Assembly (NCBI RefSeq): GCF_963668385.1
Contig: NZ_OY764327.1
Coordinates: 2,170,001-2,234,000, forward strand
From: an uncultured Carboxylicivirga sp.
GTDB taxonomy: Bacteria > Bacteroidota > Bacteroidia > Bacteroidales > Marinilabiliaceae
Length of the DNA: 64,000 nt
Direction of reading: 5' to 3'
Shown here: piece after piece, positions 21,980 through 62,843 of the stretch
Position numbering within the stretch: position 1 is the stretch's first letter
Layout: every line of letters begins with the position of its first letter
Notes under the pieces: model-generated
Seen by the model: the letters and a program-made list of their open reading frames with translations, nothing else
What the model was told of the DNA's origin: nothing
The model's database searches: none
Translations under genes and position numbers: made by a program

Positions 21980-22357
21980 TTATAACTCATTCAAGATGTC
22001 CACTATTTCATTTAGCACATCTTTCTTTATCGAAGAATTTGTCGTTGTAATCTTCCGACGTAGATAATATTGTGGCACTTGCTTTTTAATAAGCACCTTT
22101 GCCATTTTCCCCAAAATAATCAACAATTCTTTTTCAGGTGATTCACCTTGAAAAAAGTCATTGGGTGTAGCCTTTGAAAAATGACTACTAACGGGATTGT
22201 GACACTCTTGCAATCTTGAAAGTGTAATTCTATATTCATCCTGCATTTTTTGAAACTCAAGTACAGTTCCCCCGGCATCAGGATGGAGTTGCTTTGCTAA
22301 ATGACGATAAAGTAGTTTGGCTTGTTCTACATTAGTAATACCCTGAAAATACTTCAT
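21980..22357 (-). CDS. J-domain protein of the integration module
   Basis: The 125-residue protein begins with a compact J domain: VEQAKLLYRHLAKQLHPDAGG with the essential HPD at residues 25-27, followed by FQKMQDEYRITLSRL. J domains stimulate DnaK-type ATPases; in mobile elements they are used to remodel replication or recombination proteins. The rest is basic and helical (RRKITTTNSSIKKDVLNEIV) without a Gly/Phe or zinc-finger region. Its ATG overlaps the stop of the upstream DUF4248-like gene by 4 nt, so the two are translationally coupled. Confidence 0.75.
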   Translation of the reverse strand: MKYFQGITNVEQAKLLYRHLAKQLHPDAGGTVLEFQKMQDEYRITLSRLQECHNPVSSHFSKATPNDFFQGESPEKELLIILGKMAKVLIKKQVPQYYLRRKITTTNSSIKKDVLNEIVDILNEL

Positions 22358-22587
22358 AGCTGTTCAAATTCTTCAAGTGATATACTAAAGTGTTCCAGGA
22401 TTAAAAGGAGTTGTTGTTTGTTGTAATAATGGCATCTGGTATTTCCGGCATTTGCAATTTGTTCTTTTAACGGTGGGCAAATCTCAATTTCACATCTGAG
22501 TTGCTGCATTGCCGACCTTACAGAAATACTATTGGGATATAACTTTTTTACAATGTCTTGTTTTAATATTGTTCTTCGTATTATCAT
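22354..22587 (-). CDS. DUF4248-like small protein heading the integration module
   Basis: ATG at 22587 gives 77 residues (MIIRRTILKQDIVKKLYPNS). The pattern LYPNSxSxxSAMQxLRxEI ... CPxLKxQIAxAG ... KQQLLLILEHF resembles DUF4248, small putative helix-turn-helix proteins of Bacteroidota; the family name is my recognition, not a search. A close paralogue is encoded at 62369-62602 at the other end of the element, with the same start context and an upstream leader of identical length. An upstream ATG (22629) lies in the leader and is not used in the paralogue. Probably a DNA-binding regulator. Confidence 0.65.
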   Translation of the reverse strand: MIIRRTILKQDIVKKLYPNSISVRSAMQQLRCEIEICPPLKEQIANAGNTRCHYYNKQQLLLILEHFSISLEEFEQL

Positions 22588-22696
22588 ATTTGAAAAATTT
22601 TGCAAGAAATGAATACTTTTTTGAAACAAAAAGCATTTTGAAAAGCATGAGTGGAATTAAACAGGATTTTATTACTAATAAAACAAAGTATATCGT

Positions 22697-22828
22697 AATA
22701 AATCAAAAAACATAAAGGGTCTATAAACACGAAAAGCCTCTGTAAGAGGCTTGTTTTAAGTGTTATATGTATTTCTTTAGGCACAATTCATTGTATTACA
22801 CCCTTTGGTAAATTGTTCTGTAAATATA
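22697..22828 (-). promoter_or_regulatory. Promoter/leader A, repeated at 62712-62843
   Basis: This 132-bp block recurs without gaps upstream of the other DUF4248-like gene. Fixed elements, in minus-strand order, are a -7-like TATATTTA (22821-22828), AAGGGTGTAA (22796-22805), a hairpin AAGCCTC-N5-GAGGCTT (22734-22752), CGTGTTTATAG (22721-22731) and TGTTTTTTGATTTATT (22697-22712). The distance from the -7 element to the start codon is 234 bp in both copies. The leader RNA would be about 228 nt. A conserved structured leader suggests shared control of both operons; the signal is unknown. Confidence 0.6.
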
Positions 22829-22909
22829 TTAATTTGGAATTAAATTGGAAAAAATTTTCATTATTGAAGGCCAAAACTAACTTTGAAAACCAAATACTCA
22901 AAAAAACAC

Positions 22910-23008
22910 GTTAACCGTGTTAACTTTGTTAACTGTGCTTGTAAATAACAGAAATTCTGTCACTTAATGGTTAACACATCAGTAATTCCTATGTTAACCC
23001 ATGTTAAC
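22910..23008. repeat. GTTAAC iteron cluster, left of cargo
   Basis: GTTAAC occurs at 22910, 22919 and 22928 (9-bp period), then at 22970, 22993 and 23003. A matching cluster lies at 57736-57830. Regularly spaced short repeats next to a primase-bearing module suggest initiator-binding iterons of a replication origin, or operator sites. Confidence 0.6.
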
Positions 23009-23071
23009 TGTTCTAAGTATATTGTATCAGAGGATTAAAAGATAGTTTTTTAGAGCAATAGAGTTATCAAC

Positions 23072-23857
23072 CTAACTCGAATAAACATGCACACTATTTT
23101 GTGCTGCCGGAAGGTAGTTGATTCCAAACCAACAAATGAGTAATACTACAAATGCCAACATTAAAATCAGAAAAATGCTTTTATGGCTTAAATTACTTTT
23201 TATTCTGAAATGAATATAAATCAGGTAAACTGCCCAAGTAAGAAATGCCCATGTCTCTTTGGGGTCCCAAGTCCAATAATGCCCCCATGCTGCTTTTGCC
23301 CATAAAGCCCCAAAAATAAGCCCTAACGTGAGGAAGCCAAAGCCGACATAGACTATGTTATCTGTTTTTAATACAAAATCCTCTTTCAGATTATCCTTTC
23401 TAATAGCATATAATCCAAGCAATCCGAAAAGTGCAGATAAGCCCAATAAGGCGTAAGCAATCATATACACAATTACATGAGGTACAAACCAAATGCTTTG
23501 CAATGCTGGCATTAGTGTTTTACTGTGAATATCAGGATTTAGGTAGTTCAATAATAAAAATAGAATAGCCATACCAAGTGAATACATAAGTATTAGCTTG
23601 ATTTTCCAGCGCTTAAATATTACATAGCCTGAAATTGCCAGGAAGAATGAATACCAAAGTCTTGTCTCTCCAAGAGTTCTTAATGGAGGGCGTTGAAGAT
23701 TAGCCCAAAGCAAAATAATAAATACAGCCAGGCTTAAAGTCCCAAGAATAGCCCCGACATTAGCTATTTTACCTGCTTTGTTAGATAAGGATGATACAAT
23801 TGCAATGAACCATGCTGCCAACGAAATAATTGCAAATACTTCAAAATTATGCCACAT
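23072..23857 (-). CDS. ccsA: Cytochrome c assembly protein CcsA (ResC/HemX-CcmC superfamily)
   Basis: The 261-residue protein has about eight hydrophobic segments. WAKAAWGHYWTWDPKETWAF is the WWD haem-handling motif of the CcsA/CcmC family. With CcsB (ResB-like) it forms the system II cytochrome c synthase, which exports haem and attaches it to CXXCH. Its start overlaps the ccsB stop by one base (TAATG). As the last gene of the nrfHA-ccsBA operon it most likely serves the nine haem sites of NrfA and NrfH. Confidence 0.9.
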   Translation of the reverse strand: MWHNFEVFAIISLAAWFIAIVSSLSNKAGKIANVGAILGTLSLAVFIILLWANLQRPPLRTLGETRLWYSFFLAISGYVIFKRWKIKLILMYSLGMAILFLLLNYLNPDIHSKTLMPALQSIWFVPHVIVYMIAYALLGLSALFGLLGLYAIRKDNLKEDFVLKTDNIVYVGFGFLTLGLIFGALWAKAAWGHYWTWDPKETWAFLTWAVYLIYIHFRIKSNLSHKSIFLILMLAFVVLLICWFGINYLPAAQNSVHVYSS

Positions 23858-25122
23858 TACACACCCTCCTTTCTATTTCCAGTCCATATCAGATAGCATG
23901 TTCCGGCAATAATTAAAAAGAATCCCAAATATACCAAAGGCAACCAGGGGTCTTTAACCAGTTCTAATGTGCTTTGAGTTGACCACCGCCCCATCGATGC
24001 ATCATAGCTGGTTTGATATACTTTCCATCCGGCAATCTTGATTGGTTTATTTACCTCGATGATAGTATCGTAAAAAGCGCCTTCTTTTTCGAAGACAGAT
24101 ATTTCTGACAGGAATCGTTTTGCTTCGGGTTCGGTCATAAGCATGATAGTGCTTGAATCTATCGGGTACATTTCCTGGCGGTATAAAGCACTCGGACTTG
24201 AAATCCAGAATGTATCAACCATTCCGTTGTATGACTTTGTTATCATCGTTGATTGTGTTGCCCCCATCCCCAACACAGGTTCAAACCTATTCAAAACAGG
24301 AGCAGAACTCATTAAAAGCTTTTCAATCTTAAAATCGTAATCCTTATAGTTGAATTGCAAGCCCTTGTTTGGGTCTATCATTAAAGGTTTGTTGTTTTGA
24401 TTGATTATCTCCCCGGTTTTGTTATCAACGAATGCAATTTTCGCAGGATATTCTTCAATGGAGAAATCTCGTAGCTTAATGGCAAAATTCAATTCTACTG
24501 TACTGTTTCCGTTCTCAACTCCATACCAGGTAGTTTTGCCTTCTTCAAGAAACATATTCAGTTTTTGTATGTCTCCTGCTCCTAAATGAGCCGATGCGAT
24601 ACAAAGCCACAAACCAAAATGGTTTAGAAAGAATCCAATATTTCTTTTTGATAATTTTGTAATCCTTTTTATGGTTACTGTACCAAGTATGATTAAAAAG
24701 AAAACCACTCCGATTGTGTAAGTCCAGCTTGATGTTACATCAAACAGAAAAAACAACGAATCTGTTTGTCTTTGTGGAACTAATGCCATTGAAAGAGATG
24801 GTACAACGAACAATATTATCCCTGCAATAGATGCAGGAACGCTGTAAAACCATTTGAAAAATGCTCTTTTTTTTGATAACAGGTATAGCAATAACGAGAT
24901 ATTTGCTAAGAGTGCAACTGAAATAACATTGGCTGGCCATGAAATCTTCGGAGCTTTTGTTCCTGTTATAAATTCAAGCCCCAATGATGCCAAAAGCAGG
25001 GCAAAAGCTATCAAGAAGCTTTCTGAGTACCTCCAGGGAAGTACCCACAAGCTTTTCTTTTCTTTCGTATTTTGCAAGGTCTTTATTCTAATATTTTGAT
25101 TCTCTTTGACTGGCTTCTTCAA
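23857..25122 (-). CDS. ccsB: ResB-like cytochrome c biogenesis protein (CcsB)
   Basis: The 421-residue protein has four hydrophobic segments near the N-terminus (about 30-180), a periplasmic domain and a final helix (LPLVYLGFFLIIAGTCYLIW), the ResB layout. It is the partner of CcsA in system II cytochrome c maturation. No ATG is available near the N-terminus. TTG at 25122 (35-nt overlap with nrfA) or TTG at 25077 (11 bp after the nrfA stop) are possible starts; I keep the longer one. It lies between nrfA and ccsA in one operon. Confidence 0.85.
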   Translation of the reverse strand: MKKPVKENQNIRIKTLQNTKEKKSLWVLPWRYSESFLIAFALLLASLGLEFITGTKAPKISWPANVISVALLANISLLLYLLSKKRAFFKWFYSVPASIAGIILFVVPSLSMALVPQRQTDSLFFLFDVTSSWTYTIGVVFFLIILGTVTIKRITKLSKRNIGFFLNHFGLWLCIASAHLGAGDIQKLNMFLEEGKTTWYGVENGNSTVELNFAIKLRDFSIEEYPAKIAFVDNKTGEIINQNNKPLMIDPNKGLQFNYKDYDFKIEKLLMSSAPVLNRFEPVLGMGATQSTMITKSYNGMVDTFWISSPSALYRQEMYPIDSSTIMLMTEPEAKRFLSEISVFEKEGAFYDTIIEVNKPIKIAGWKVYQTSYDASMGRWSTQSTLELVKDPWLPLVYLGFFLIIAGTCYLIWTGNRKEGV

Positions 25123-26587
25123 GCCATTTAGGAACTACGGTTTCAAGAAATTCTGCTTTATCAGCATTTAATTTAGCCATATCTAAACCAATATATTTCT
25201 GGGCTTTCGCTTTGGTCGAAATATCAGGCATTTCAACTTCTTTATTATGACCAAGGTCAGCTAATAAACGAGTAAGTTTAATTCTTGCTTCTTGTGCAAT
25301 ATTGATACCCGATGAAACAATGCGTCCGGTTTCAACTGGAGAATGGAATGATGCACCATGAGCAGCAACGGAATAATCCCATCGCCATTGAGCATGTCGA
25401 ATATCCATAAGTATGGGTTGCATTTGTTTTTCGTTTGCACCTTTGTCCCATGCTGCTTTAGCTTCTACGTGTGCTTTAACCAATAAATCTTCTAGAATAT
25501 TTACATTTTCTTTAATCTTATCCTGACGAGAATATACATCGGCTATGAGTTTGTGAGCTTCTTCTCGATGGCAAACTTGGCATGAATTAGCCACATTGTT
25601 GAGCGGACTTTGAATATGATGGTCGGTAAATTTTACTCCCCCTTCGCTCTTATAAGGCATGTGACAATCGGCGCAAGAAACCCCTCGTTGTGCATGAACA
25701 CCTGTTAAGTAAGTTTCATAACCCGGATGTTGTGCTTTTAGCATCGGAGCCTTACTTAATTGATGCGTCCAGTCACTAAAGTTCATATTGTCATAGTATT
25801 CTTCTGCGGCTTCAACGGTCATTCCATTATCCCAGGGGAAAGTAAGGTAAGGAACACCTTCGATTTTATCCTTATTGAAGTAATATTCGACATGACATTG
25901 GGCGCAAACTAAAGTTCGCATTTCCTGATGCGTGGCTTTACTTATGTCTTTTCCTTGTCTTTCAAATGCTTCAATCAATGCAGGACGAGAAATGCGTAAT
26001 TGCATGGTATTTACGTCGTGACAATCGGCACAACCAATCGGATTAACAATCTCAGCTCCCCATTTTTCCCATGAACCTTTATAAAACTCTGCAATCCCCA
26101 CTTCATTCATCATTCTTGGAACATCGGGGCTTTTACAAGTCCAGCAGGTATTTGGCATTGGACTTTTTACACTATCATTTGGTGCGCCAGTTCTTAAAAT
26201 ATTACGGACATCATTTACCGCATAATAGTGGCCTCGTCCCTGGTTATATTCTTTAGAAAAACCATATCCAGCCCAAAGTACAACCATTCTAGGGTCTTCC
26301 TCCAATTCATCTATAGTTGCAGAACCATTGTATTTACTTCTAAATGTTGTATCAGAAGTATTATAGTATGATTCGAATTCACGAGGAAAATTAGCTCCCC
26401 ACTTTTCATTACGGGGTTCAAACTGAGAAAAATCGTTTTTGGGTGCATAGGCAAACACCGCTTCGCTTCTTCTTTCTACAACACTTGAGGCTAACAATCC
26501 TAAAAGGAATACAACTATTATTGTTCCGAGGAAAAGAATCCAGCCTTTCCAAGGTTTTTCTTTGATTTGTTCGCTGAATGATTTCAT
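25088..26587 (-). CDS. nrfA: Cytochrome c nitrite reductase, ammonia-forming (pentahaem)
   Basis: The 499-residue protein has an N-terminal anchor or uncleaved signal (residues 14-34) and five haem sites: CWTCK (148-152), CADCH (186-190), CAQCH (228-232), CADCH (305-309) and CQVCH (336-340). The lysine in CWTCK is the proximal ligand of the catalytic haem, diagnostic for NrfA. The enzyme reduces nitrite to ammonium with six electrons in the periplasm, and also reduces NO and hydroxylamine. NrfH, encoded 9 bp upstream, supplies electrons from menaquinol. The operon promoter has a candidate HcpR operator. Confidence 0.97.
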   Translation of the reverse strand: MKSFSEQIKEKPWKGWILFLGTIIVVFLLGLLASSVVERRSEAVFAYAPKNDFSQFEPRNEKWGANFPREFESYYNTSDTTFRSKYNGSATIDELEEDPRMVVLWAGYGFSKEYNQGRGHYYAVNDVRNILRTGAPNDSVKSPMPNTCWTCKSPDVPRMMNEVGIAEFYKGSWEKWGAEIVNPIGCADCHDVNTMQLRISRPALIEAFERQGKDISKATHQEMRTLVCAQCHVEYYFNKDKIEGVPYLTFPWDNGMTVEAAEEYYDNMNFSDWTHQLSKAPMLKAQHPGYETYLTGVHAQRGVSCADCHMPYKSEGGVKFTDHHIQSPLNNVANSCQVCHREEAHKLIADVYSRQDKIKENVNILEDLLVKAHVEAKAAWDKGANEKQMQPILMDIRHAQWRWDYSVAAHGASFHSPVETGRIVSSGINIAQEARIKLTRLLADLGHNKEVEMPDISTKAKAQKYIGLDMAKLNADKAEFLETVVPKWLEEASQRESKY

Positions 26588-26596
26588 ATGGTTATG

Positions 26597-27196
26597 CTAA
26601 TTAGTTTCTTTTAGTGCTTCTTTTAACCAATCTGGTACAGGACTTTCAGGTAATGGTACTTTTGCATTAGGCGTACTTGAAAGACTGTTCACCCTGCCAT
26701 GGGGAACTTCTCGATGGCATTCCCAACATGTTCTGTCCGTTCTGTTTGAATGAAAGTCGGCATGAATGGTATTCATTTTTGAATCTGTAATAAGGTCACT
26801 GTGGCATCGAATGCAATTTTGCTGAACAACCTGATGTCCGGCTTCCTTAATTTGGATGACCTGAGGTTCTGCTCTCATAGTAAAGATGGTTGCATGTCGC
26901 ATACCATCTTTCCCTTTAAAATAATATTTATTGAGTACGTTATTGTGAGGTACGTGACAGTCGTTACAATTAGCCCATTCTCTATGGGAGCTATGCATCC
27001 ATGTAGCATATTGAGGAGCCATAATATGGCAGTTAACACAGGTTTTAGGGTTGTCAGATAAATAAGATGATGCGTTGGAAATGTAAAATAGGAAGAAAAA
27101 AAGACCAACTAAGATAGCGGAAACAATAATGACTGGAATTCGCCATTTATCTGGAGGTAAAATCTTTTTCAATAGAATCATAGTCTTTAATTTCAT
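26597..27196 (-). CDS. nrfH: NrfH tetrahaem quinol dehydrogenase
   Basis: The 199-residue NapC/NirT-family protein has one N-terminal helix (about 20-42) and four haem sites: CVNCH (53-57), CNDCH (77-81), CIRCH (128-132) and CWECH (157-161). It oxidises menaquinol at the inner membrane and passes electrons to NrfA. First gene of the nrfHA-ccsBA operon. A perfect -7 element (TATATTTG, minus strand, 27264-27271) and an upstream 18-bp palindrome control it. Confidence 0.96.
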   Translation of the reverse strand: MKLKTMILLKKILPPDKWRIPVIIVSAILVGLFFFLFYISNASSYLSDNPKTCVNCHIMAPQYATWMHSSHREWANCNDCHVPHNNVLNKYYFKGKDGMRHATIFTMRAEPQVIQIKEAGHQVVQQNCIRCHSDLITDSKMNTIHADFHSNRTDRTCWECHREVPHGRVNSLSSTPNAKVPLPESPVPDWLKEALKETN

Positions 27197-27263
27197 TATA
27201 TATTAAAACTATCCTCCCCTCATTTTCATTAAAACAAATTAATGAAAATTCAATCTTGCAATA

Positions 27264-27271
27264 CAAATATA
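27264..27271 (-). promoter_or_regulatory. -7 element of the nrfH promoter
   Basis: On the minus strand this reads TATATTTG, a perfect TAnnTTTG. The palindrome at 27292-27309 ends exactly 20 bp upstream, putting it near -43, the position of a class II CRP-type activator site. Confidence 0.75.
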
Positions 27272-27291
27272 GGTTGTCGCAAATAAAGAAT

Positions 27292-27309
27292 CTGTACCAT
27301 TTGTTACAG
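27292..27309. promoter_or_regulatory. Candidate HcpR/FNR-type operator, nrfH / PepSY divergent region
   Basis: CTGTACCATTTGTTACAG is an imperfect 18-bp palindrome of the CRP/FNR class and near-identical to the perfect one at 32690. On the minus side a -7 element lies 20 bp away. On the plus side TAAAATTG (27330-27337), one mismatch from TAnnTTTG, lies also exactly 20 bp away. One site may therefore activate both directions. Confidence 0.75.
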
Positions 27310-27446
27310 CTTGTGATTTTTCTATTTCATAAAATTGCATCTAATAAATTTAAGACTTTTTAAAGAGATTAAAAAAAATATTCAGTATTTACGATTTTTA
27401 AGATGCTGTAATTTAGATAAGAACGAACGTTTAGACTGATTGATAA

Positions 27447-28955
27447 ATGGGAAAATTTTATAGAAAACTTCATAAGTGGCCAGGACTACTCATTGCATTT
27501 TTGCTTTTATATTTTGCGATTACAGGGATAATTATGAATCACCGTGAGTTTTTCTCAGGCATTGATGTTTCACGAAGTAGCCTCCCAAATGATTTCCGTT
27601 ATAAGAATTGGAACAATAGTGCCATTAAGGGTAATCTTATTATAAGTTCAGATAGCATTCTGGTCTTTGGTAATATTGGTGTATGGCTTACAGATTCTAC
27701 TTTTACGAATTATCAATCATTAAATAATGGTTTTCCACATGGTAGCGACAATCGTAAAATTTTTGACTTACATCTTTCAACCGATGGAAATTTATACGCT
27801 GCTACACAATTCGGATTGTTTGCTTTTAATAAGAAGAATAAGCAATGGACTAAGTTTGATTTAGATGTTAATATTAAACGCTTTGTGGCGATTGAAAGTA
27901 TTGGGGATACGCTTTACGTTTTGAATCGCTCTTATTTGTTTAAAGGGAAATCCGATGGAATTAGTACCCATTTTCAGAAAATGGAGCTGAAACAACCAAT
28001 TAATTACAGCGATAAGGTTTCGCTTTTTGAGACTATGTGGCAAATTCATTCAGGTGAAATTTTCGGAATTCCCGGAAAGCTGTTTGTTGATGTGTTAGGA
28101 TTAGTAACTATCTTTTTATCGATTACCGGAATTTTTTACTTCTTTTTCCCAGGATGGATAAAGCGTAGAAAGAAAAAGTCGAAAACAGTTACATCAATAG
28201 TAAAGACGAACCGATGGTCGTTAAAATGGCACAATAAAACAGGAGCATGGTTATTTGTTTGCCTGATAGTTTTGTTTTTTACAGGCATGTTCTTACGCCC
28301 TCCGTTGCTTATTGCTATTGCCTATTCAAAAGTAAGCCCTGTAAAATATTCTCATCTCGATCAGCATAATCCCTGGTATGATAAATTGAGGGACTTAAAT
28401 TTTGATGAACAACGAAATGAATTTCTTTTGGCAACATCGGAAGGAATCTATTATATGGACAAAGATAATCTGGCTCCAATAGCTTTTAAGGTTCAGCCTC
28501 CGGTAAGTGTTATGGGAATTAATGTGCTTGAACCTTTCAATGATGGAGCATACATTTTAGGTTCGTTCAGCGGTTTGTTCTTATGGCATCCCGCTCATCC
28601 TGAGATTTACAACTATGCAAAAGGTACTTTATATGCAGGAAATACAACTGGCAGACCTGTTGGCGATTTTAAAGTTACAGGATTGATAACTGATTTGGAC
28701 GACAAAAAATATATGATTGACTATGACAAAGGAGCCATTCCTTTGTATCACGATAAGTTATTTCCGGAAATGCCAAATAATGTCCTTAAAGAATCGAAAA
28801 TGTCACTCTGGAACTTATCACTTGAAATTCACACAGGACGTTTTTTTCGATTTCTTCTTGGTAACTTTTACATTCTCCTGGTTCCATTGTCTGGGTTGGT
28901 GGGTGTAATGGTTGTTTTGAGCGGGTATTTGTTATGGCGAAAAAAGTTTAGATAG
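27447..28955 (+). CDS. PepSY-associated transmembrane protein
   Basis: The 502-residue protein has helices at about 12-30, 205-230, 262-285 and near the C-terminus (FYILLVPLSGLVGVMVVLSG), with conserved His residues in the helices (KLHKWPGLL, KWHNKTGAW, EIHTGRFF), the PepSY_TM layout. The periplasmic part between helices 1 and 2 looks like a beta-propeller-like sensor (SSDSILVFGNIGVW, HLSTDGNLYAATQFGLFAF). Related proteins act in reductive iron or haem processes. It is divergent from nrfH and shares the central palindrome, so it probably belongs to the same regulon. Exact role unknown. Confidence 0.75.
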   Translation: MGKFYRKLHKWPGLLIAFLLLYFAITGIIMNHREFFSGIDVSRSSLPNDFRYKNWNNSAIKGNLIISSDSILVFGNIGVWLTDSTFTNYQSLNNGFPHGSDNRKIFDLHLSTDGNLYAATQFGLFAFNKKNKQWTKFDLDVNIKRFVAIESIGDTLYVLNRSYLFKGKSDGISTHFQKMELKQPINYSDKVSLFETMWQIHSGEIFGIPGKLFVDVLGLVTIFLSITGIFYFFFPGWIKRRKKKSKTVTSIVKTNRWSLKWHNKTGAWLFVCLIVLFFTGMFLRPPLLIAIAYSKVSPVKYSHLDQHNPWYDKLRDLNFDEQRNEFLLATSEGIYYMDKDNLAPIAFKVQPPVSVMGINVLEPFNDGAYILGSFSGLFLWHPAHPEIYNYAKGTLYAGNTTGRPVGDFKVTGLITDLDDKKYMIDYDKGAIPLYHDKLFPEMPNNVLKESKMSLWNLSLEIHTGRFFRFLLGNFYILLVPLSGLVGVMVVLSGYLLWRKKFR

Positions 28956-29008
28956 GTCAATAACCAATAGATATTTTGTAAATTGTTATAAACTAAAATT
29001 TTAAGAAT

Positions 29009-29185
29009 ATGGAAGCAAAAGAGCAAGTTTTAGAAGTCATGAAAAAGGAGGGCACTCCATTAAATGCTGGTAAAATAGTTGAATTAACGGGACTAGACCG
29101 TAAGGTTGTTGATAAGGCAATGACAGAATTAAAAAAAGAAGAAGCTATCGTTTCTCCTAAAAGGTGTTATTGGACTGCAAAATAA
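29009..29185 (+). CDS. Small winged-helix-like protein
   Basis: A 58-residue frame begins [20 protein letters not shown] and ends KRCYWTAK. It has the pattern of a minimal winged helix: helix 1 [11 protein letters not shown], helix 2 AGKIVELTG, recognition helix [15 protein letters not shown] and a short hairpin [11 protein letters not shown]. Such single-domain proteins in anaerobe genomes are annotated as transcriptional regulators or MarR-like fragments. It begins 53 bp after the PepSY gene and ends 12 bp before the cupin gene, so it is likely co-transcribed with both. Confidence 0.7.
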
Positions 29186-29197
29186 TATTTTAAAATT

Positions 29198-29536
29198 ATG
29201 ATTTCAAGAAGCTATAAAACAGAAGAACCAAAAGAAAACCCGCATAAGGTTGATGTTAAGCAGTTGTATAATAAGGAATCGGCACAAGTAATGCACATTA
29301 CCTTAAAACCCGGTGAAACATTAAAACCGCACAAAACACCAGTTGATGTAACCTTTTATGTGTTGGAGGGAACTCCAACGGTACATGTAGGTGATGAATC
29401 GGTGGTGATTGAAAAAGATACCTTGATTGAAAGTCCTGCTGATATTGTTCATTATTTGAGTAACGAAGGAACAAGTCAAGCCAGAATATTGGTTACAAAA
29501 GCACCAAGACCAACTTCGCAAACCAAGCTTTTATAA
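29198..29536 (+). CDS. Cupin-domain protein (first copy)
   Basis: The 112-residue single-domain cupin has motif 1 HITLKPGETLKPHKTPVDVTFYVLEG (residues about 31-56) and motif 2 ESPADIVHYLSNEG. Histidines and a glutamate suitable for a metal site are partly kept. It is followed at 17 bp by a DUF438/hemerythrin gene. The same pair, cupin plus DUF438 protein, recurs at 34489 and 34967. Ligand unknown; the context suggests nitrosative stress or metal-bound NO chemistry. Confidence 0.75.
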   Translation: MISRSYKTEEPKENPHKVDVKQLYNKESAQVMHITLKPGETLKPHKTPVDVTFYVLEGTPTVHVGDESVVIEKDTLIESPADIVHYLSNEGTSQARILVTKAPRPTSQTKLL

Positions 29537-29553
29537 ACTAAAATCCAATTGTC

Positions 29554-30807: not shown

Positions 30808-31324
30808 ACTGATAATTACTCCCAAAACGAAGATATTCGATTTGTTGGAAGCATATCCTCAATTGGAGGATGTGCTAATAGCTGTTGCTCCACCGTTCAA
30901 AAAGTTGAAGAATCCTGTATTGCGAAAAACCATTACAAAGATTACTACTTTAAGTCAGGCTTCTGTAATTGGTGGTATCAAAGTTGAAGAACTCATAAAC
31001 AAGCTTCGGGCAGAAGTAGGGCAATCAGCAACCGATTCTATAGAAACAGAAGGTAGTCATTTCATTACAGAACAACCTGACTGGTTTGATGAATCGCATG
31101 TCTCAGAATCAATTGATATTGGGGAAATGCTAAATGCAGGTGAACAGCCAGTGCATGAAGTATTAGCTTTATTGAAGAAACTTGAACCAGGAAAAATATT
31201 AAAAGTAATTGCACCTTTTATTCCGGCTCCACTTATTGATAAATCACTAAGTTTGAACTATGAGCATTGGCTTGACAAAAAGGGTGAAGAAGAATTTTTC
31301 GTGTATTTCAGAAATCATTCATAA
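30800..31324 (+). CDS. DUF1858 - DUF2249 protein
   Basis: The 174-residue protein joins an N-terminal DUF1858-like domain (ITPKTKIFDLLEAYPQLEDVL, about residues 5-65) to a C-terminal DUF2249-like domain (VHEVLALLKKLEPGKILKVIAPF ... PLIDKSL, about 115-174). Both domains recur in denitrification and nitrosative-stress operons beside hemerythrin-like proteins. Its start lies 8 nt inside the upstream DUF438 gene, showing translational coupling. The DUF2249 fold resembles TusA, so a redox-carrier role is possible, but the TusA-type cysteine is not visible. Confidence 0.75.
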   Translation: MDKLIITPKTKIFDLLEAYPQLEDVLIAVAPPFKKLKNPVLRKTITKITTLSQASVIGGIKVEELINKLRAEVGQSATDSIETEGSHFITEQPDWFDESHVSESIDIGEMLNAGEQPVHEVLALLKKLEPGKILKVIAPFIPAPLIDKSLSLNYEHWLDKKGEEEFFVYFRNHS

Positions 31325-31331
31325 CGAAAAT

Positions 31332-31859: not shown

Positions 31860-31882
31860 TTTGAAAGGCCATTGCTTGTTTT
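31851..31882 (+). terminator. Terminator between convergent operons
   Basis: AAGCAATG (31851-31858) pairs with CATTGCTT (31870-31877), followed by GTTTTTA. It ends the plus-strand run; the hcpR-like gene ends at 31882 on the other strand. Confidence 0.7.
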
Positions 31883-32637: not shown

Positions 32638-32689
32638 AAACTGTGACTTAGATATTTATTTTCGACAAAGTTAGAAAAAAATGACCTTC

Positions 32690-32707
32690 CTGTAACATAT
32701 GTTACAG
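32690..32707. promoter_or_regulatory. Candidate HcpR/FNR-type operator, hcpR / hcp divergent region
   Basis: CTGTAACATATGTTACAG is a perfect 18-bp palindrome. The plus-strand -7 element GAACTTTG (32728-32735) lies exactly 20 bp downstream, the same spacing as at nrfH. The hcpR -7 element lies 16 bp away on the other side. Confidence 0.8.
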
Positions 32708-57454: not shown

Positions 57455-57735
57455 TTTGAGTATAATTAGACTATATCAAACATACAAAATTCCATAATTG
57501 TATGTATTGGAAGGGGTTGATAATCTATTAAAATTCTATCGAGGCAATCCGCTTCAACCTAATTTCAAGGAATAAATGATTTTCGCCTTTCTTGGTAATT
57601 TTATTGTAATAGCGGATTCGAGCTTTCTTGATTGCCAAAAATAGTTCCTTTGATTGGCAATTGCAGCAAGTGTCATTTTACCAATAATGAAGTCCATTTC
57701 TAAAATTTCATCAAAGATTACTAACAAGTATGTAT
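57455..57735. other. Gap between cargo and right iteron cluster
   Basis: No confident gene. Two short minus-strand frames (57554-57697, 47 codons; another ending at 57528) have partly protein-like sequence, the second slightly like the arm-binding N-terminus of a tyrosine recombinase, but both are too short to call. Confidence 0.35.
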
Positions 57736-57830
57736 GTTAACCATGTCTACCTCATGTTAACCGCTAAAGAGTTGTAATACTGAATAATATGATATGTGTT
57801 TAACACGGTTAACATAGTTAACAAAGTTAT
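57736..57830. repeat. GTTAAC iteron cluster, right of cargo
   Basis: GTTAAC occurs at 57736, 57756, 57808 and 57817; GTTTAAC at 57798 and GTTAT at 57826 continue the 9-bp period. It resembles the cluster at 22910-23008 in reverse orientation. It lies just beyond the stop of the primase-helicase gene, a usual place for an origin. Confidence 0.6.
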
Positions 57831-57887
57831 TCGTTCAATATCTTTTCAAGTTTAAAAAGGACAAAAAAAATACCGATTAAAACGGTA

Positions 57888-60587
57888 TTATAAGTTCAGT
57901 TCAACATCATTTATTATTATCCCCATACTTTCGGGTATATCTTCATATTTAAACCGATAACAGCTCCCTAACGGTTTTTTATTAATTGCTTTATCTCTCG
58001 ACTTCTGCGTTGTATTTTGAATGAAAGATATATTACCTTTTGATGTAAGCAATGATTTCAATGAGTTCGCATCCAAATCGTTTAAGCCGTTCTTTTTTAC
58101 ATATTCCTTGTAATATGGAAACAGGAGAGGAAATTTAATAAACAGGTTCTTATTTACCGGGTCTTTTAAGTAATGCGTGTTTACTTTAATCTCACTTTTT
58201 GGTTGGCTCAGTTTAAAAGCAATGGCTTCCCAAAATATGGAAACATCTTTAATGGTACTGGCCATCTCATTTTGCTTAATTGTATTTTCAATAACGGACT
58301 GTTTGTATGTTGGATAATCAAATGGAAGTTCCAAATTGTTTTGTAATAGCTGGACAGGAGTTAGCAATAAAGCTAGGTGTTTAATCTGTCGGTCAGATAT
58401 TTCAGTAACAGCCGTTATTTCCGGTTTTAGTTCGTAAAAGATAGAATCAAACACTGTTTTAAACCTCGATTCAATTACATTCCGGTATTTTAGAAGTTCT
58501 CTGGTAATATTACAAAAGCCTTGTTCTTTTTCTTTTAAAAGGGTTTTATAAGCTTGGGTGCTTTCATCTGAAAACTTATTGTCCTCAAAATGTAGTACAA
58601 TCATTCGGGCAAATAGTGCAGCTTCAGATGTTGGCAGCTCGTTACCATCTACCATACAGGCAGAACTGATTTCAAGTGTCGTAGTTTTATTATCGTTACT
58701 CTTTTGAGCCATAGTGTAAAGCTCTCCATCGTACCCAGTTTTAAAAACATCAACCGTTTTCTTATCAATGGCATTGGTGTATTCTTTCAGATAATAAAGT
58801 GCATTATTTCGTTGAGTAAGTGAACGAGAAAAACCTTTGTCAGTTGAGTTTAGTAATGATATGCCATGATTCGGTTCGCCAAACAGATGCAGAAAGAAGT
58901 TGACAAAATTTGATTTACCAGCACCCTGGTCACCAAATAGGAACAGGAATGGGAAAAAGCCTGTAAGTTCAAGTATAAAATCACGACACAAAGCAAGTAT
59001 GATGAAGGATATGCCAATTGCGCCATTTATACCATAAGCCTTGTAAATCAGTTCCGACCACTCTTTAAAGTTCAAGTTTCCTGCTTTGTATGTAAATTTC
59101 CGTTGTCCGGAATAGCTTTTGTCATCAAGGTTTGTGTATGCAAATGGAGGTAAGTAAAAGGCGGATTTACCATGATTCACAATACCTAGCTTATCAGGAT
59201 AAAGCAATTTATTATCATGGGTTATTGTTGCATCCGCAAAACAATAGGCTTTCGATTCTTGCTGATAACCAAGCTGATTAACTGCAATGGCATTTTTCTC
59301 ATTATCGTACAGGTAAGTCAGGATAGTGTCAAGGTTTTGGGTGTTCCCAAAAAAAGTTAAGCCACGCCCGGATATGCTACGAATTACTTTCTTAAACTTA
59401 TCGAGGTTTAGCTCAGAGCTTGTAATTTCATTTACTGTAATCTCTCCTGTATTTCGTTGAAACTTAATCAAGCGTTTGCTTTCCTTTGTGCCATCCATTA
59501 AGTGATAAACCGAATCCATCAGAAAGTTGGATAGCTTTCTCTCAACAGGTTTGCTTTTATGAAACTCATTGGCATAGTAACATCCATTTTTCTTATAGAA
59601 ATTGTATTCTTCAATGTCGGTTAGTTCATCAATGCTAAATTTTGGAATAGGCTTATTAATAATATCTTCCCAAAGCAATTGGTAATTATCGGTATTTTGA
59701 AGAAAGCCTACGATTGTTTTATCTTGAAGTAAATCATTAGCATCCTTATTATCAGGCAAAACCAATCTACGCAGCGATTTAATGTCAAATCGGTTGGATA
59801 AAATAAAATCTTGATAATACTCTGCACAATTATTTCCTGCATTATCGTTGTCCATTGCCAGAACAACATTTTTCCCTTCAATATACTTTTGCAATATTTT
59901 AGTGTTTTTAATTTTGTTTTCAGTGGAAAACAAAGCGATGGATGAACAGCCTTTCATTGATAATGCATTTACAACGCCCTCTTTTATGAAAACAACATCA
60001 TTATCGGGATTGTACATTCTATCATAGATACTGCCGTTTAAAGTTCCGTTATTTTTGGCTTTCGACTTCCCCTTTTCAGGATTAATCATCCTGCGGTTAA
60101 TGAGTTGATTGTTGGCATCAATAAAAACAATGGCATTGGCATGTGAATCATACCAATAACTATTGTCAGGCAAAGCATCAATAAAACTAATTCCACGAGA
60201 TTTTAGGTAATCGGTAGCTGTTTCTTTAGGATTGTTTTTTATGGCAAAAAGCATTTTGTCGAAAGCACTTGTTATATTCTGTGATGGCTGGAACGGCTCT
60301 TTAATGCCGAGATATTCCTCCTTCAAATATTTGATAGCCTTATGTTCGTTCCAACCTGAGTTTAGAGAAATCAAGAAATCAATAGTGCTACCACCTGATC
60401 CACATGAAAAACATTTGTAGAAATTATTTTTCCTTTTAATGCTAAAAGCCGGAGATTGGTTCGTGCCTTTACCGCTACCACAAAAAGGACATTTTTCCAG
60501 TTGATTGGTCTTATTAAAGCAAGTTCCGGTTTCCTTTTCAATTAATGCTTTTATATCAATTTGCTTTACTTTTTCAATTGTTTGCAT
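57888..60587 (-). CDS. Primase-helicase of the element's replication module
   Basis: 899 residues from ATG at 60587 (the codon two before is TTG). N-terminal CHC2-type zinc finger CPFCGSG ... FYKCFSCGSGG (about 33-65). Toprim-like domain with VVFIKEGVVNALSMKG and VVLAMDNDNAGNN (DxDxxG, about 200-250). C-terminal P-loop ATPase with FLFGDQGAGKSNFVNFF (about 550). This zinc finger-Toprim-helicase fusion is typical of autonomously replicating mobile elements and phages. It synthesises primers and unwinds DNA, perhaps from the adjacent iterons. Confidence 0.85.
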   Translation of the reverse strand: MQTIEKVKQIDIKALIEKETGTCFNKTNQLEKCPFCGSGKGTNQSPAFSIKRKNNFYKCFSCGSGGSTIDFLISLNSGWNEHKAIKYLKEEYLGIKEPFQPSQNITSAFDKMLFAIKNNPKETATDYLKSRGISFIDALPDNSYWYDSHANAIVFIDANNQLINRRMINPEKGKSKAKNNGTLNGSIYDRMYNPDNDVVFIKEGVVNALSMKGCSSIALFSTENKIKNTKILQKYIEGKNVVLAMDNDNAGNNCAEYYQDFILSNRFDIKSLRRLVLPDNKDANDLLQDKTIVGFLQNTDNYQLLWEDIINKPIPKFSIDELTDIEEYNFYKKNGCYYANEFHKSKPVERKLSNFLMDSVYHLMDGTKESKRLIKFQRNTGEITVNEITSSELNLDKFKKVIRSISGRGLTFFGNTQNLDTILTYLYDNEKNAIAVNQLGYQQESKAYCFADATITHDNKLLYPDKLGIVNHGKSAFYLPPFAYTNLDDKSYSGQRKFTYKAGNLNFKEWSELIYKAYGINGAIGISFIILALCRDFILELTGFFPFLFLFGDQGAGKSNFVNFFLHLFGEPNHGISLLNSTDKGFSRSLTQRNNALYYLKEYTNAIDKKTVDVFKTGYDGELYTMAQKSNDNKTTTLEISSACMVDGNELPTSEAALFARMIVLHFEDNKFSDESTQAYKTLLKEKEQGFCNITRELLKYRNVIESRFKTVFDSIFYELKPEITAVTEISDRQIKHLALLLTPVQLLQNNLELPFDYPTYKQSVIENTIKQNEMASTIKDVSIFWEAIAFKLSQPKSEIKVNTHYLKDPVNKNLFIKFPLLFPYYKEYVKKNGLNDLDANSLKSLLTSKGNISFIQNTTQKSRDKAINKKPLGSCYRFKYEDIPESMGIIINDVELNL

Positions 60588-60628
60588 CTGCAATGTTATT
60601 GAGCCTTAACCTGGCTATTTAAATCCTT

Positions 60629-61747
60629 TTATTCTTCTTTCCCTGCGCTTTCATCATCGTCCTCAATACTCAAACGCTGTTTTTCCTTTTCGAGATGCTG
60701 AACCATGCTTTTAGTAAGCTCTTTGCTTTCCATGCAATTGCCAATTATTGTTATCATATAAATAGCAAATTGAATATCGCTTTGTTTTAGTGCTTTTGCA
60801 GTATCGTTTATGGCATTAAAGATTTGTTTTTGCTGCTCTGTTTTTGGGATAGGCATTTCTTCTATGTCAACATCGTGTTGGGTTATGGAAGAATGCCCAT
60901 GTAGTTCTTCATCCTCTTCAACAAAACCCAGGGCAGCTTGTAACTCATCTTTTGATAAACCCATTAATTCGGCTGCCTTTGGGCTATTCCCAAGTATCTT
61001 GCTTCCAATTCCTGAGAGTACACCCGTTGCTACACGTTTTAATAGTTCTGTGTTTGAATACCCGGCAAGTCTGGTTTCAAGCTCTGACACCTCTGTTTTG
61101 TACTCAGAATTTGCCTTTTCTAATTCCTGATTTTGTATTTTTAGGCTATCTCGTTCAGAAGTTATATCGAGTAACTGCTTTTTCAATGAGTTGAGTTCGG
61201 TTTCCTGTTTGTAATCGCTGAATTTTTTCTCAAACTGCATTAAAGAATTTTCATACCGGGAATTATTTACCGCTCCCAATAGTCCGGCTAATCCGCTTAA
61301 GGCATTTCCGTTGTTTTCTTTGTCGGCATCATTTCCTGTTAATGCACCAAATAACAAATTGAAGTTTTCAATACTTCCCAATCCACCTATATTATTATTC
61401 AATTGGTATTTTTTAATTGCCATATCAACCGCCTGCTCTATCTGCGCCAGATTTGATACAGGTTTCTCAGCTTTCCTGTTCTCCTCTAAATCAATGTTGT
61501 ATCGTGTAACTAATCCTGCTTTTGGACTTTTACCACGATAAATATCTACTTTGATATTACCGCCATCTTGATTGACAATATCTTTAGCCGATTTCATATT
61601 CTCATTAAAAGCTTCAATATTATTGGTTCTTGGTACAATCAGTATAAGTCCTGAATTGTCTTCGACTAATATTTCATAAGCGTAAGTTGCGTTCTCTTGC
61701 AAATTCCGATATATGGCATCTTGCAAATTGCTATGTTTTTCCTTCAT
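60629..61747 (-). CDS. Coiled-coil hypothetical protein of the replication module
   Basis: 372 residues, not recognised. Residues about 1-100 are globular (YAYEILVEDNSGLILIVPRT). About 115-160 are glycine- and asparagine-rich (NNNIGGLGSIENFNLLFG). About 165-240 form a coiled coil (KKQLLDITSERDSLKIQNQE). The last 100 residues are acidic and helical. The gene lies 41 bp upstream of the primase gene, so it likely works with it, for example as a scaffold or loader. No enzymatic motif is visible. Confidence 0.6.
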   Translation of the reverse strand: MKEKHSNLQDAIYRNLQENATYAYEILVEDNSGLILIVPRTNNIEAFNENMKSAKDIVNQDGGNIKVDIYRGKSPKAGLVTRYNIDLEENRKAEKPVSNLAQIEQAVDMAIKKYQLNNNIGGLGSIENFNLLFGALTGNDADKENNGNALSGLAGLLGAVNNSRYENSLMQFEKKFSDYKQETELNSLKKQLLDITSERDSLKIQNQELEKANSEYKTEVSELETRLAGYSNTELLKRVATGVLSGIGSKILGNSPKAAELMGLSKDELQAALGFVEEDEELHGHSSITQHDVDIEEMPIPKTEQQKQIFNAINDTAKALKQSDIQFAIYMITIIGNCMESKELTKSMVQHLEKEKQRLSIEDDDESAGKEE

Positions 61748-61779
61748 TGTTGCTTTTTTTTATGTTGTACTTAATTCTT

Positions 61780-61857
61780 TTGGTATTAAAAGCTATTGGT
61801 CAGGTACATTTTTCTATAAAAAGCTATTATGACCTGCTTTATAGCGATTAATACCAA
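61780..61857. repeat. Long imperfect inverted repeat in the replication module
   Basis: TTGGTATTAA (61780-61789) and TTAATACCAA (61848-61857) are perfect complements. Inside them GCTAT (61792-61796) faces ATAGC (61841-61845) and CAGGT (61801-61805) faces ACCTG (61832-61836). It lies in a gene-free 327-bp stretch. Possible roles: origin of transfer or replication, or an operator. Confidence 0.5.
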
Positions 61858-62074
61858 TTGTGAGCAATTAAAACCTATCAAACAGCAACTTATTTAAATA
61901 TTGAAGCTATTAAGTAGTGACTGCTCATCTATTATTTTTTAAACTCTTTCTGTGATTTTCTCTTTGACTTACTTCTAATAGACTTTTCAATACTATAGAG
62001 CAAAAGAGAGGGATTCTTAACGCATTAGACTGAAACTATGGGGTGTTATTAATAACCCATAGCTTACCTTCATC

Positions 62075-62296
62075 TTACTCATCATCTTCTTCCGAGTAAT
62101 CATCATTCAGGTCTTCCAAATGGTCAATCATTTCAATAATAGCCTGGCTGTGTTCCTCTGGTTCGTATTCTACTTTAACAAGGATTTCATCATCTTCATT
62201 TGTGCCAATGATTGCGCCTTCAAGTTCATACTCTCCCAATAACCCGGCAAATTCAACCATTAAATCTTCCGAAACATTAAATGTTCTAATCTTCAT
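62075..62296 (-). CDS. Small highly acidic protein
   Basis: 73 residues, not recognised, with about one third Asp/Glu and an acidic tail (LEDLNDDYSEEDDE). The first part alternates strands and helix (GLLGEYELEGAIIGTNEDDE). Strongly acidic small proteins on mobile elements are sometimes DNA mimics that block restriction or DNA-binding proteins; no motif proves that here. It lies between the second DUF4248-like gene and the inverted repeat at 61780. Confidence 0.6.
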   Translation of the reverse strand: MKIRTFNVSEDLMVEFAGLLGEYELEGAIIGTNEDDEILVKVEYEPEEHSQAIIEMIDHLEDLNDDYSEEDDE

Positions 62297-62368
62297 AATT
62301 TTAAATTTTAATTAAACAAAAAATTGACTACTCATTTCGGGGGAGGGAGTATTGTCTAATATGGTGTA

Positions 62369-62602
62369 TTACAGCTCCTCAAACTCTTCTGGCTCAACAC
62401 AGAAATGTTCGAGTATTAATAAAAGTTGCTGCTTGTTGTAGTAGTGCCGTTTAGTATGACCAGCTTTCGCAATCTGCCTTTTTAAATCGGGGCATGTGTC
62501 TATTTCACGCCTTAGATGCTGCATGGCAGATTTAATTGAGACACTATTAGGATATAACTTTGTTACTAACTCTTGCTTTAATATTGTTCTGCGATTTATC
62601 AT
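62369..62602 (-). CDS. DUF4248-like small protein heading the replication module
   Basis: 77 residues, a close paralogue of the product of 22354-22587: RRTILKQELVTKLYPNS, SAMQHLRREIDTCPDLKRQIA, HYYNKQQLLLILEHF. Both are the first genes of minus-strand operons and both have the same leader and promoter at identical distance. Probable small DNA-binding regulator coordinating integration and replication functions. The family name is by recognition. Confidence 0.65.
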   Translation of the reverse strand: MINRRTILKQELVTKLYPNSVSIKSAMQHLRREIDTCPDLKRQIAKAGHTKRHYYNKQQLLLILEHFCVEPEEFEEL

Positions 62603-62711
62603 AGCGATGAATTTTATTTAGATAATTGATTTTTTTTAGAGGAATTGATGTTGAGAATAGAATACAACTGTAGAACCTTGATATTTCGCATAATAAATCG
62701 AAACATAAGGC

Positions 62712-62843
62712 AATAAATCAAAAAACACTTAGGGACTATAAACACGAAAAGCCCCTGAACGGAGCTTATTTTAAAAGAATCGACATGTATTTTCGGCATA
62801 ATTATAAAAATTACACCCTTGACAATTAGCAAAGGCAAATATA
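62712..62843 (-). promoter_or_regulatory. Promoter/leader B, repeated at 22697-22828
   Basis: Same 132-bp block as leader A, without gaps. In minus-strand order: -7 element TATATTTG (62836-62843, perfect here), AAGGGTGTAA (62811-62820), a weaker hairpin AAGC-N-CC ... GG-N-GCTT, CGTGTTTATAG and TGTTTTTTGATTTATT. The -7 element is 234 bp from the start codon, as in copy A. The hairpin bases differ between copies but pairing is largely kept. Confidence 0.6.

What the first reader, a model, noticed from the sequence alone, without database searches (positions are those of the whole stretch)
22354..62843. Twin promoter-leader-DUF4248 heads on the integration and replication modules
Blocks 22697-22828 and 62712-62843 align without gaps over 132 bp, and in both the -7 element is exactly 234 bp from the start codon of paralogous 77-residue proteins. 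Conserved features are a hairpin, CGTGTTTATAG, TGTTTTTTGATTTATT and AAGGGTGTAA. A leader of about 228 nt kept at constant length in two copies implies RNA-level control shared by the two operons, so recombinase and primase would be induced together. I know of no named regulatory RNA with these features.
Basis: partly seen in the sequence, partly recalled or inferred. Interest (0 to 1): 0.78.

Follow-up and report, generated by a model that had tools for sequence, protein, structure and literature searches.

The report
Translated leader heading mobile-island operons
Two matching stretches of DNA at the ends of a mobile island look like untranslated leaders, but related genomes show that they are kept readable by ribosomes up to the next gene although the peptide they would make hardly matters, which suggests an unusual control switch shared by mobile and defence genes in one group of bacteria.

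Summary
In detail: 86 of 132 bases match without gaps, and both -7 elements lie 234 bp from the ATG of DUF4248 paralogues. Both copies sit in what I read as one ~43-kb tRNA-Arg island; two more islands repeat the layout. It is not a recent duplication: a covariance model finds 60 matches in 22 of 71 family genomes. Nor is it a constant-length untranslated RNA. An ORF starts inside the first hairpin and stays open towards the DUF4248 start. In 50 of 50 distinct leaders that frame has 0 stops in 4828 codons, against 284 and 232 in the other frames; 0, 120 and 104 in 20 clusters. Amino-acid constraint is weak or absent (pN/pS 0.64-1.00; DUF4248 0.15-0.27). Leaders of 280 nt or more carry A-runs phased at 10.4-10.5 bp (power 10.25, codon shuffles 1.64). 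Best reading: a translated leader coupled to DUF4248, overlying a phased array of DNA sites, used as a portable control head for recombinase, primase and restriction operons. Translation, coupling and protein binding are inferred. New variant of a known kind.

The parts
22821..22828 (-). -7-like element TATATTTA of leader a
   Evidence: sequence; Bacteroidota -7 consensus TAnnTTTG is recalled, not tested
22779..22803 (-). hairpin 1 of leader a; its 3' arm holds the GTG start codon (22784-22782) of the leader ORF
   Evidence: 96.2% of cells paired over 32 leaders, many of them chosen with a hairpin pattern; weak fold in this copy (-3.6 kcal/mol, z -0.17)
22734..22752 (-). hairpin 2 of leader a (AAGCCTCT-TAC-AGAGGCTT)
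22584..22784 (-). leader ORF a, 66 codons, GTG start, TGA overlaps the DUF4248 ATG (ATGA)
22354..22587 (-). DUF4248 gene a (77 aa)
21980..22357 (-). small DnaJ-like gene (Pfam DnaJ E 0.032, below cut-off), overlaps the DUF4248 stop by 4 nt
19756..21414 (-). large serine recombinase (552 aa); its 3' end runs through the tRNA-Arg attachment site
19776..19848 (+). tRNA-Arg (CCG), attachment site at the left end of the island
22905..23008 (.). GTTAAC repeats upstream of leader a
57733..57850 (.). GTTAAC repeats beyond the primase 3' end
57888..60593 (-). primase with CHC2 zinc finger, Toprim and DUF927 (901 aa)
60629..61747 (-). 372-aa protein of unknown family in the primase operon
62075..62296 (-). 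73-aa acidic protein in the primase operon
62369..62602 (-). DUF4248 gene b (77 aa)
62614..62799 (-). leader ORF b, 61 codons from the ATG inside hairpin 1 (62799-62797), ends 11 nt before the DUF4248 start; the frame is also open further upstream (97 codons from another start)
62749..62767 (-). hairpin 2 of leader b
62795..62818 (-). hairpin 1 of leader b, 3' arm holds the ATG start
62836..62843 (-). -7-like element TATATTTG of leader b
   Evidence: sequence
63003..63039 (+). right end of the island (TTGGGATCAC) followed by a terminator hairpin, read as the displaced terminator of the tRNA-Arg

Best explanation
The block is the 5' end of a translated leader. Transcription starts just below the -7 element. 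The first conserved hairpin (GGGyrTAAT-loop-ATTrTGCC) holds the start codon of a leader ORF in its 3' arm. Ribosomes that start there read through the leader and stop at or near the DUF4248 ATG, most often in an ATGA overlap, so DUF4248 (and by further 4-nt overlaps often the DnaJ-like gene) is translated by termination-reinitiation. Selection keeps the frame open more than the peptide: reading delivers ribosomes and may also shield the AT-rich leader from Rho. In longer leaders the read region also carries degenerate TCAAAAGC units on one face of the helix (10.4-10.5 bp), most simply sites for a small DNA-binding protein that polymerises one subunit per turn; DUF4248 itself is the first candidate, giving autoregulation. 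The module is a portable head on recombinase, primase and restriction operons of mobile islands. Shown by comparison: conservation, hairpin pairing, open frame, weak or no amino-acid constraint, phasing. Inferred: transcription start, translation, coupling, gating by hairpin 1, the protein that binds.
For: Open frame: 50 of 50 distinct leaders, 0 stops in 4828 codons versus 284 and 232 in the other frames; after clustering by alignment, 20 leaders (75%): 0, 120, 104; 9 leaders (65%): 0, 50, 47. ORF ends at +4 (ATGA) in 33 of 50. Cases not used before: L166 (IMG/VR) and L168 (another family) fit. No codon signature: pN/pS 0.64-1.00, codon-position differences 2441/2356/2350 in the 458-nt set, DUF4248 0.15-0.27 on the same pairs. 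Hairpin 1 pattern within 600 nt upstream in 25 of 26 loci fetched by DUF4248 alone, and in 0 of 19 DUF4248 loci of other genomes of the class. Pairing 95.3% of cells against 31-52% when slid. Phasing: power 10.25 (19 leaders) versus 1.64 for codon shuffles; 9.25 versus 1.69 in 15 clustered leaders; A-run starts fall in all codon positions (67, 68, 97). Precedent: island SGI1 needs translation of leader S004 for RepA (PMC7826253, passages).
Against: No transcript, ribosome or protein data. Covariation proper is small: 2 pairs with both sides changed, and shuffles reach the covariation score in 38 of 500; most support is wobble, and many aligned leaders were chosen with a hairpin pattern. Of 50 leaders 17 do not end at +4: 8 end 10-19 nt before the DUF4248 start or match, 2 end 4 nt before, 6 end 5-14 nt inside, 1 ends 59 nt inside. 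An in-frame stop within 45 nt upstream (37 of 50) is no commoner than in another frame (38, 24), so the ORF start is not marked by it. Four leader-like sites without a DUF4248 match keep a long open frame (L082, L085, L086, L114), so the frame is not always tied to DUF4248. pN/pS falls to 0.45-0.49 in single 3' blocks of two sets, so some peptide constraint is possible. DUF4248's predicted fold matches nothing significantly. Phasing is weaker in short leaders like those of the window (5.2, n=6), other window stretches are phased more strongly, and in L059 stretches on the other strand exceed the leader.
Confidence: 0.62

Rival explanations
1. The leader ORF is an ordinary, fast-evolving small protein gene (for instance a small membrane protein or toxin-like peptide) that merely precedes DUF4248.
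For: Open frame in 50 of 50; hydrophobic N-terminal part (LFVFI...) and a recurring C-terminal NPNPTL in several sets; pN/pS 0.45-0.49 in single 3' blocks; long open frames also at four sites without a DUF4248 match.
Against: pN/pS 0.64-1.00 overall with the other two frames alike (0.68-1.01); equal change at all codon positions in the 458-nt set; no Pfam match above cut-off for 6 peptides; length mostly 60-160 codons with unlike middles.
Confidence: 0.15
2. A non-coding attenuator: hairpin 2 is an intrinsic terminator and hairpin 1 a sensor or protein site; the open frame is incidental.
For: Hairpin 2 scores as terminator-like on the minus strand in both copies; both hairpins are conserved.
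Against: The tail after hairpin 2 is only about four T, and CTTAT, CTTAA or CAATA in divergent leaders; chance does not account for 0 stops in 4828 codons.
Confidence: 0.1
3. The leader is mainly a DNA element: curved or protein-wrapped DNA at an origin next to iteron-like repeats, kept translated only to avoid Rho termination or R-loops there.
For: 10.5-bp phasing is confined to the leader (10.25; upstream 1.80, DUF4248 gene 0.68, after it 1.56); short repeats with locus-specific words directly upstream in the loci I read (GTTAAC, TTACTTAG, GTTACATTC, TGAGGGA); relatives of a DnaG-type primase upstream in 14 of 26 loci.
Against: Stops coincide with the DUF4248 start in an ATGA overlap in 33 of 50, which protection alone does not require; short leaders have weaker phasing.
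Confidence: 0.13

Closest known systems
SGI1 S004-repA leader ORF (PMC7826253; passages seen)
   Same: Integrated island; leader ORF overlaps the start of the next gene; leader translation in cis is needed there.
   Different: One replication gene in one element; there a stem-loop at the overlap hides the repA start. Here the conserved hairpin holds the leader's own start, the head is used on many operons, the next gene is DUF4248, and longer leaders carry a phased array.
Plasmid R1 tap-repA and IncI/IncB repY-repZ type leader peptides (recalled; titles seen in a reference list)
   Same: Leader ORF translation coupled to a downstream gene of a replicon, RNA hairpin at the 5' end.
   Different: Antisense RNA and pseudoknot control there; neither tested here. 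No sequence relation shown.
M. tuberculosis uPPE2-ppe2 AUGA uORF (PMC11260477; passages seen)
   Same: Out-of-frame uORF ending in an AUGA overlap; downstream expression depends on it, mainly by termination-reinitiation.
   Different: Ligand riboswitch in front; a single gene pair.
toiL-topAI uORF of E. coli (PMC12121999; passages seen)
   Same: Translation in a 5' region linked to Rho termination.
   Different: Senses antibiotics by ribosome stalling in the uORF.
BldC and RdfS small winged-helix proteins (PMC5859096, PMC11963761; passages seen)
   Same: Small DNA-binding proteins that line up head to tail on DNA, with one DNA turn per BldC subunit on a long site; RdfS controls an integrative element and its own promoter.
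   Different: DUF4248 shows no significant fold match and its DNA binding is unknown; the array here lies in an open leader.

Membership tests
Leader ORF with translational coupling (termination-reinitiation) | Uninterrupted ORF that ends at or overlaps the next start codon | tested here: met
   50 of 50 open; +4 overlap in 33 of 50, 16 others within 19 nt, 1 reads 59 nt in
Leader ORF with translational coupling (termination-reinitiation) | Downstream expression depends on leader translation | not testable with these tools
   needs reporter or mutant
Leader ORF with translational coupling (termination-reinitiation) | Downstream start hidden by RNA structure until ribosomes arrive | not tested
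   structure at the DUF4248 start was not examined
CopA/Inc-type antisense-controlled plasmid leader | Antisense RNA complementary to the 5' hairpin | not tested
   only a generic promoter scan was run
Intrinsic-terminator attenuator | GC hairpin plus U tract, conserved | tested here: not met
   hairpin conserved, U tract not
Known Rfam family | Score above gathering threshold | tested here: not met
   only tRNA in the window; leader a also searched permissively, hits far below threshold
BldC/RdfS-like filament regulator | Repeated sites at about one helical turn | tested here: met
   10.4-10.5 bp phasing in 19 leaders, 15 after clustering; unit degenerate
BldC/RdfS-like filament regulator | Winged-helix fold of the encoded protein | tested here: inconclusive
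   pLDDT 87 model, no significant PDB match; HTH_69 E 0.0015, below cut-off, for copy a only
Integrative island with site-specific recombinase | Recombinase at one end, tRNA attachment site, displaced tRNA end or terminator at the other | tested here: met
   an empty site could not be shown
Integrative conjugative or mobilizable element | Relaxase or type IV secretion genes | tested here: inconclusive
   none among the 30 window proteins scanned with Pfam; not all ORFs were scanned

The most novel reading that the evidence does not exclude
A leader that is selected to be read rather than for what it encodes: a ribosome path of about 60-160 codons from a hairpin-held start codon to a coupled gene, laid in its longer forms over a helically phased array of DNA sites, so that one stretch carries an RNA code, a frame without a message and a DNA-binding code, and serves as a portable control head for unrelated cargo operons of an island family.
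Probability: 0.45. Interest if true: 0.78.

Novelty: new variant of a known kind. Interest (0 to 1): 0.62.

Why it matters
Long 5' leaders are usually read as untranslated regulatory RNA. Here comparison shows a frame held open over thousands of codons with little or no amino-acid constraint, which gene finders and RNA finders could both misjudge. If right, it is a tractable case of selection for translation itself, and it gives a handle on how these islands switch recombinase, primase and restriction cargo with one shared head. It also gives DUF4248, a family of unknown function, a concrete candidate role and a candidate DNA target.

Tried and rejected
Two separate small elements: at first the 3.2-kb and 5.3-kb duplicated units looked independent. 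Rejected: tRNA-Arg lies at one end and a terminator hairpin that would suit the tRNA at the other, in two islands of this genome, and both modules recur about 30 kb apart in another species (no tRNA was found by ARAGORN in the two stretches taken there).

Intrinsic attenuator: rejected for the divergent leaders because the U tract is not kept. Known RNA family: none. DNA palindrome read as an operator: not excluded, but several changes keep U-G pairing while breaking DNA symmetry.

Empty-site check failed: the flanks are hardly conserved in the 13 other genomes of the genus. An exact-pattern scan of viral contigs found none; DUF4248 b had no match in plasmid or phage records at E 1e-5. Three weak class hits outside the order (L095-L097, E 0.001-0.009) show no hairpin 1 by my pattern.

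Script faults: one search read the leader ORF one base off; corrected, and its translations are not used. The 29 and 19 representatives were thinned at 75% identity only among leaders of equal length, so near relatives of unlike length stayed in; one search repeats both tests after alignment-based thinning. A first attempt at this failed (gap costs put all leaders in one cluster) and is not used; the other parts are. In one search the 5000 bootstraps compare the highest power between 10 and 10.75 bp (10.26 against a background mean of 3.20), not the power at 10.5 bp alone.

Rows left out: one search counts only leaders that match a hairpin pattern and are followed within 900 nt by a DUF4248 match, identical leaders dropped; 13 printed rows had no DUF4248 match (6 are the opposite strand of one palindromic hairpin, 1 more is on the opposite strand of L114, 6 are leader-like sites). 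The 50 include one degenerate copy (L122, 85 nt, no ATG for DUF4248) and one whose DUF4248 start was placed one base off (L115). Of 19 DUF4248 loci of other genomes, 15 were put through; 7 of these parsed, one of them (L136) in a wrong frame; all 19 were then tested for the hairpin pattern.
Full report
OBSERVATION. The two blocks are real. They align gaplessly with 86 of 132 identities, and both -7-like octamers end 234 bp before the ATG of 77-residue DUF4248 proteins. No Rfam family other than tRNA reaches its threshold in the window. The homology continues into the genes (378 bp at 70%).

ONE ISLAND. The leader-a unit (about 3.2 kb, with a serine recombinase) and the leader-b unit (about 5.3 kb, with a CHC2/Toprim/DUF927 primase) each have a near copy elsewhere in the genome, at 96% and 92%. 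On the left, tRNA-Arg(CCG) ends where the shared sequence begins; on the right, the shared sequence ends at TTGGGATCAC and is followed at once by a terminator hairpin of 12 pairs. The second copy has ends of the same kind around tRNA-Arg(ACG), its terminator read by eye in the alignment. I read this as one ~43-kb island, 19.85-63.01 kb, with the tRNA terminator displaced, and a second of ~33 kb across the contig origin (taking the contig as circular). A third set lies in another species (G006; modules 97% and 92% identical, about 30 kb apart). In all three, GTTAAC repeats lie on the cargo side of both modules. The cargo proteins scanned here include NrfHA-ResBC-like proteins, Hcp, a Crp-type regulator and a type I restriction system. 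Empty sites could not be shown.

HOW WIDE. A pattern search found the motif in relatives, and a scan of genome contigs with DUF4248 b gave 26 loci titled Carboxylicivirga, Plebeiobacterium, Saccharicrinis, Geofilum, Breznakibacter, Marinilabilia, Marinilabiliaceae or Bacteroidales. A covariance model from 32 leaders finds 60 matches in 22 of 71 genomes of the family, 7 of 21 genera (E up to 0.01), matches in 7 of 393 genomes sampled from the order, 5 of them from 4 other families (E up to 0.001), and in 5 of 395 from the class, 3 of them weak. The window's genome has 9 such leaders and 13 DUF4248 matches; the other 4 have no leader match and no hairpin pattern. Nor has any of 19 DUF4248 loci from 11 other genomes of the class. 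So the leader belongs to one branch of DUF4248.

THE LEADER IS AN OPEN FRAME. Of the 26 loci fetched by DUF4248 alone, 25 have hairpin 1 by pattern within 600 nt upstream. An ATG (44) or GTG (6) in its 3' arm opens a frame. Of 50 distinct leaders followed by a DUF4248 match, 50 have no stop in that frame up to 20 nt before the DUF4248 start: 0 in 4828 codons, against 284 and 232 in the other two frames (start codons and ends). Base composition predicts about 176 stops for the 29 representatives, where 0 are seen. After alignment-based thinning the counts are 0, 120, 104 (20 leaders, 75%), 0, 85, 79 (15, 70%) and 0, 50, 47 (9, 65%). The frame ends at +4, in an ATGA overlap, in 33 of 50; 8 end 10-19 nt before the DUF4248 start, 2 end 4 nt before, 6 end 5-14 nt inside and 1 ends 59 nt inside. 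An in-frame stop lies within 45 nt upstream of the start in 37 of 50, no more than in another frame (38 and 24), so this does not mark the start. Length from start codon to DUF4248 start is 196-479 nt, apart from one degenerate 85-nt copy. Two cases found later, L166 (IMG/VR) and L168 (another family), have hairpin, open frame, ATGA end and phasing. Among leader-like sites without a DUF4248 match, three have a short frame of 6, 8 and 65 codons (L120, L109, L169) and four a long one (L082, L085, L086, L114).

THE PEPTIDE HARDLY MATTERS. Over five sets of equal length pN/pS of the frame is 0.64-1.00, like the other two frames (0.68-1.01), and differences are spread evenly over codon positions (2441, 2356, 2350 in the 458-nt set; 654, 623, 517 in the 197-nt set). 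DUF4248 on the same pairs gives 0.15-0.27, so the test has power. Single 3' blocks of two sets fall to 0.45-0.49, so weak peptide constraint is not excluded. Six leader peptides have no Pfam match over its cut-off.

RNA. Hairpin 1 and hairpin 2 pair in 96.2% and 94.2% of cells; sliding the partners drops the total from 95.3% to 31-52%. Part of the alignment was chosen with a hairpin pattern, which favours hairpin 1. Changes are mostly G-C/G-U and A-U/G-U, so formal covariation is slight: 2 pairs with both sides changed, and the covariation score is reached in 38 of 500 shuffles. Hairpin 1 folds weakly in copy a (-3.6 kcal/mol, z -0.17) and better in copy b (-7.9, z -3.1).

DNA. In 19 leaders of 280 nt or more, AAA has a mean spectral power of 10.25 at 10.5 bp against 1.79 for background windows and 1.64 for codon shuffles (maximum 2.95 of 500); the highest power between 10 and 10.75 bp is reached by none of 5000 background bootstraps. 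After thinning, 15 leaders give 9.25 against 1.69, and 5 give 9.99 against 1.58. The peak is at 10.4-10.5 and A-runs start in all three codon positions (67, 68, 97). The stretches before and after show nothing like it (1.80, 0.68, 1.56). In 14 loci with leaders of 215 nt or more, the leader is the most phased stretch on its strand in 13; in L059 the other strand has higher stretches. The unit reads roughly TTCAAAAGCA. Phasing is weaker in the short leaders (5.2, n=6), and in the window other stretches exceed them.

CARGO. A small DnaJ-like gene follows DUF4248 in 16 of 26 loci, often with a 4-nt overlap. Beyond come, in the loci scanned, HsdM, N6_N4 methylase, MmeI, type IIG-like methylase, a LuxR-type ATPase and others; in the window, recombinase or primase. 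Relatives of the DnaG-type primase of L043 lie upstream in 14 of 26 loci; in several of these I read short repeats with locus-specific words between primase and leader.

MECHANISM. I favour a translated leader coupled to DUF4248 by termination-reinitiation, started from a hairpin-held codon, over an array of protein sites in the longer forms. Shown by comparison: openness, weak peptide constraint, hairpins, phasing. Inferred: that ribosomes read it, that DUF4248 depends on it, what opens hairpin 1, and that DUF4248 binds the array. The DUF4248 model is confident (pLDDT 87) but matches no solved fold significantly. SGI1 S004-repA shows that an island can depend on such a leader (PMC7826253, passages); uPPE2 shows the AUGA relay (PMC11260477, passages); toiL shows the link to Rho (PMC12121999, passages); BldC and RdfS show small proteins lined up on DNA (PMC5859096, PMC11963761, passages).

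NOVELTY. A full-text search for DUF4248 gave 3 papers, of which I saw passages of one; it treats a Porphyromonas transcript. Eight further searches (listings capped at 6 to 8 papers) listed none that I recognised as describing this leader; subscription papers are mostly not held. I file it as a new variant of leader-ORF coupling, unusual in its length, its lack of peptide constraint, its phased array and its use as a portable head.

Noticed in passing
window 39895-43295: Tyrosine recombinase gene between the hsdR and hsdS parts of a type I restriction system, with inverted repeats between 40883-41504 and 42650-43271: looks like an invertible specificity gene.
   Followed up: partly
window 44946-45989: YhcG/DUF1016 nuclease-like gene (PADLOC candidate PDC-S02) inside the type I restriction cluster.
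   Followed up: no
window 62819-62847, + strand: A perfect 12-of-12 TTGACA-17-TATAAT match reading away from leader b and overlapping its -7 region on the other strand; Bacteroidota are not expected to use this promoter type (recalled).
   Followed up: no
window 22905-23008 and 57733-57850; L043, L047, L048, L053, L057, L059 upstream of the leader: Iteron-like short repeats whose word differs by locus: GTTAAC, TTACTTAG, GTTACATTC, TGAGGGA. They lie between a primase gene and the leader, or at both edges of the cargo.
   Followed up: partly
window 19756-19848: The recombinase reading frame runs antisense through the tRNA-Arg, so its last residues are supplied by the attachment site; the same holds in L011.
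   Followed up: partly
L010 and L014 (own genome 5.259-5.275 Mb): Two leader-DUF4248-DnaJ-like heads face each other about 15.6 kb apart around a type IIG-like methylase and a relative (32% identity) of the 372-aa protein of the primase operon.
   Followed up: partly
own genome 3182856-3183810 and 5674536-5675491 (L131, L139, L146, L147): Two further pairs of DUF4248 genes without the leader; the stretch before L146 and L147 has other short repeats (ATTACTATTTATTAC-like).
   Followed up: partly
window 23072-36157: Cargo that looks like nitrite and nitric-oxide handling: NrfHA-ResBC-like genes, Hcp (prismane), Crp-type regulator, hemerythrin-PAS proteins.
   Followed up: no
L044, L033, L055, L061 leaders: A 21-bp in-frame insert (VCRTGRR) near the leader 3' end recurs in otherwise different leaders.
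   Followed up: no
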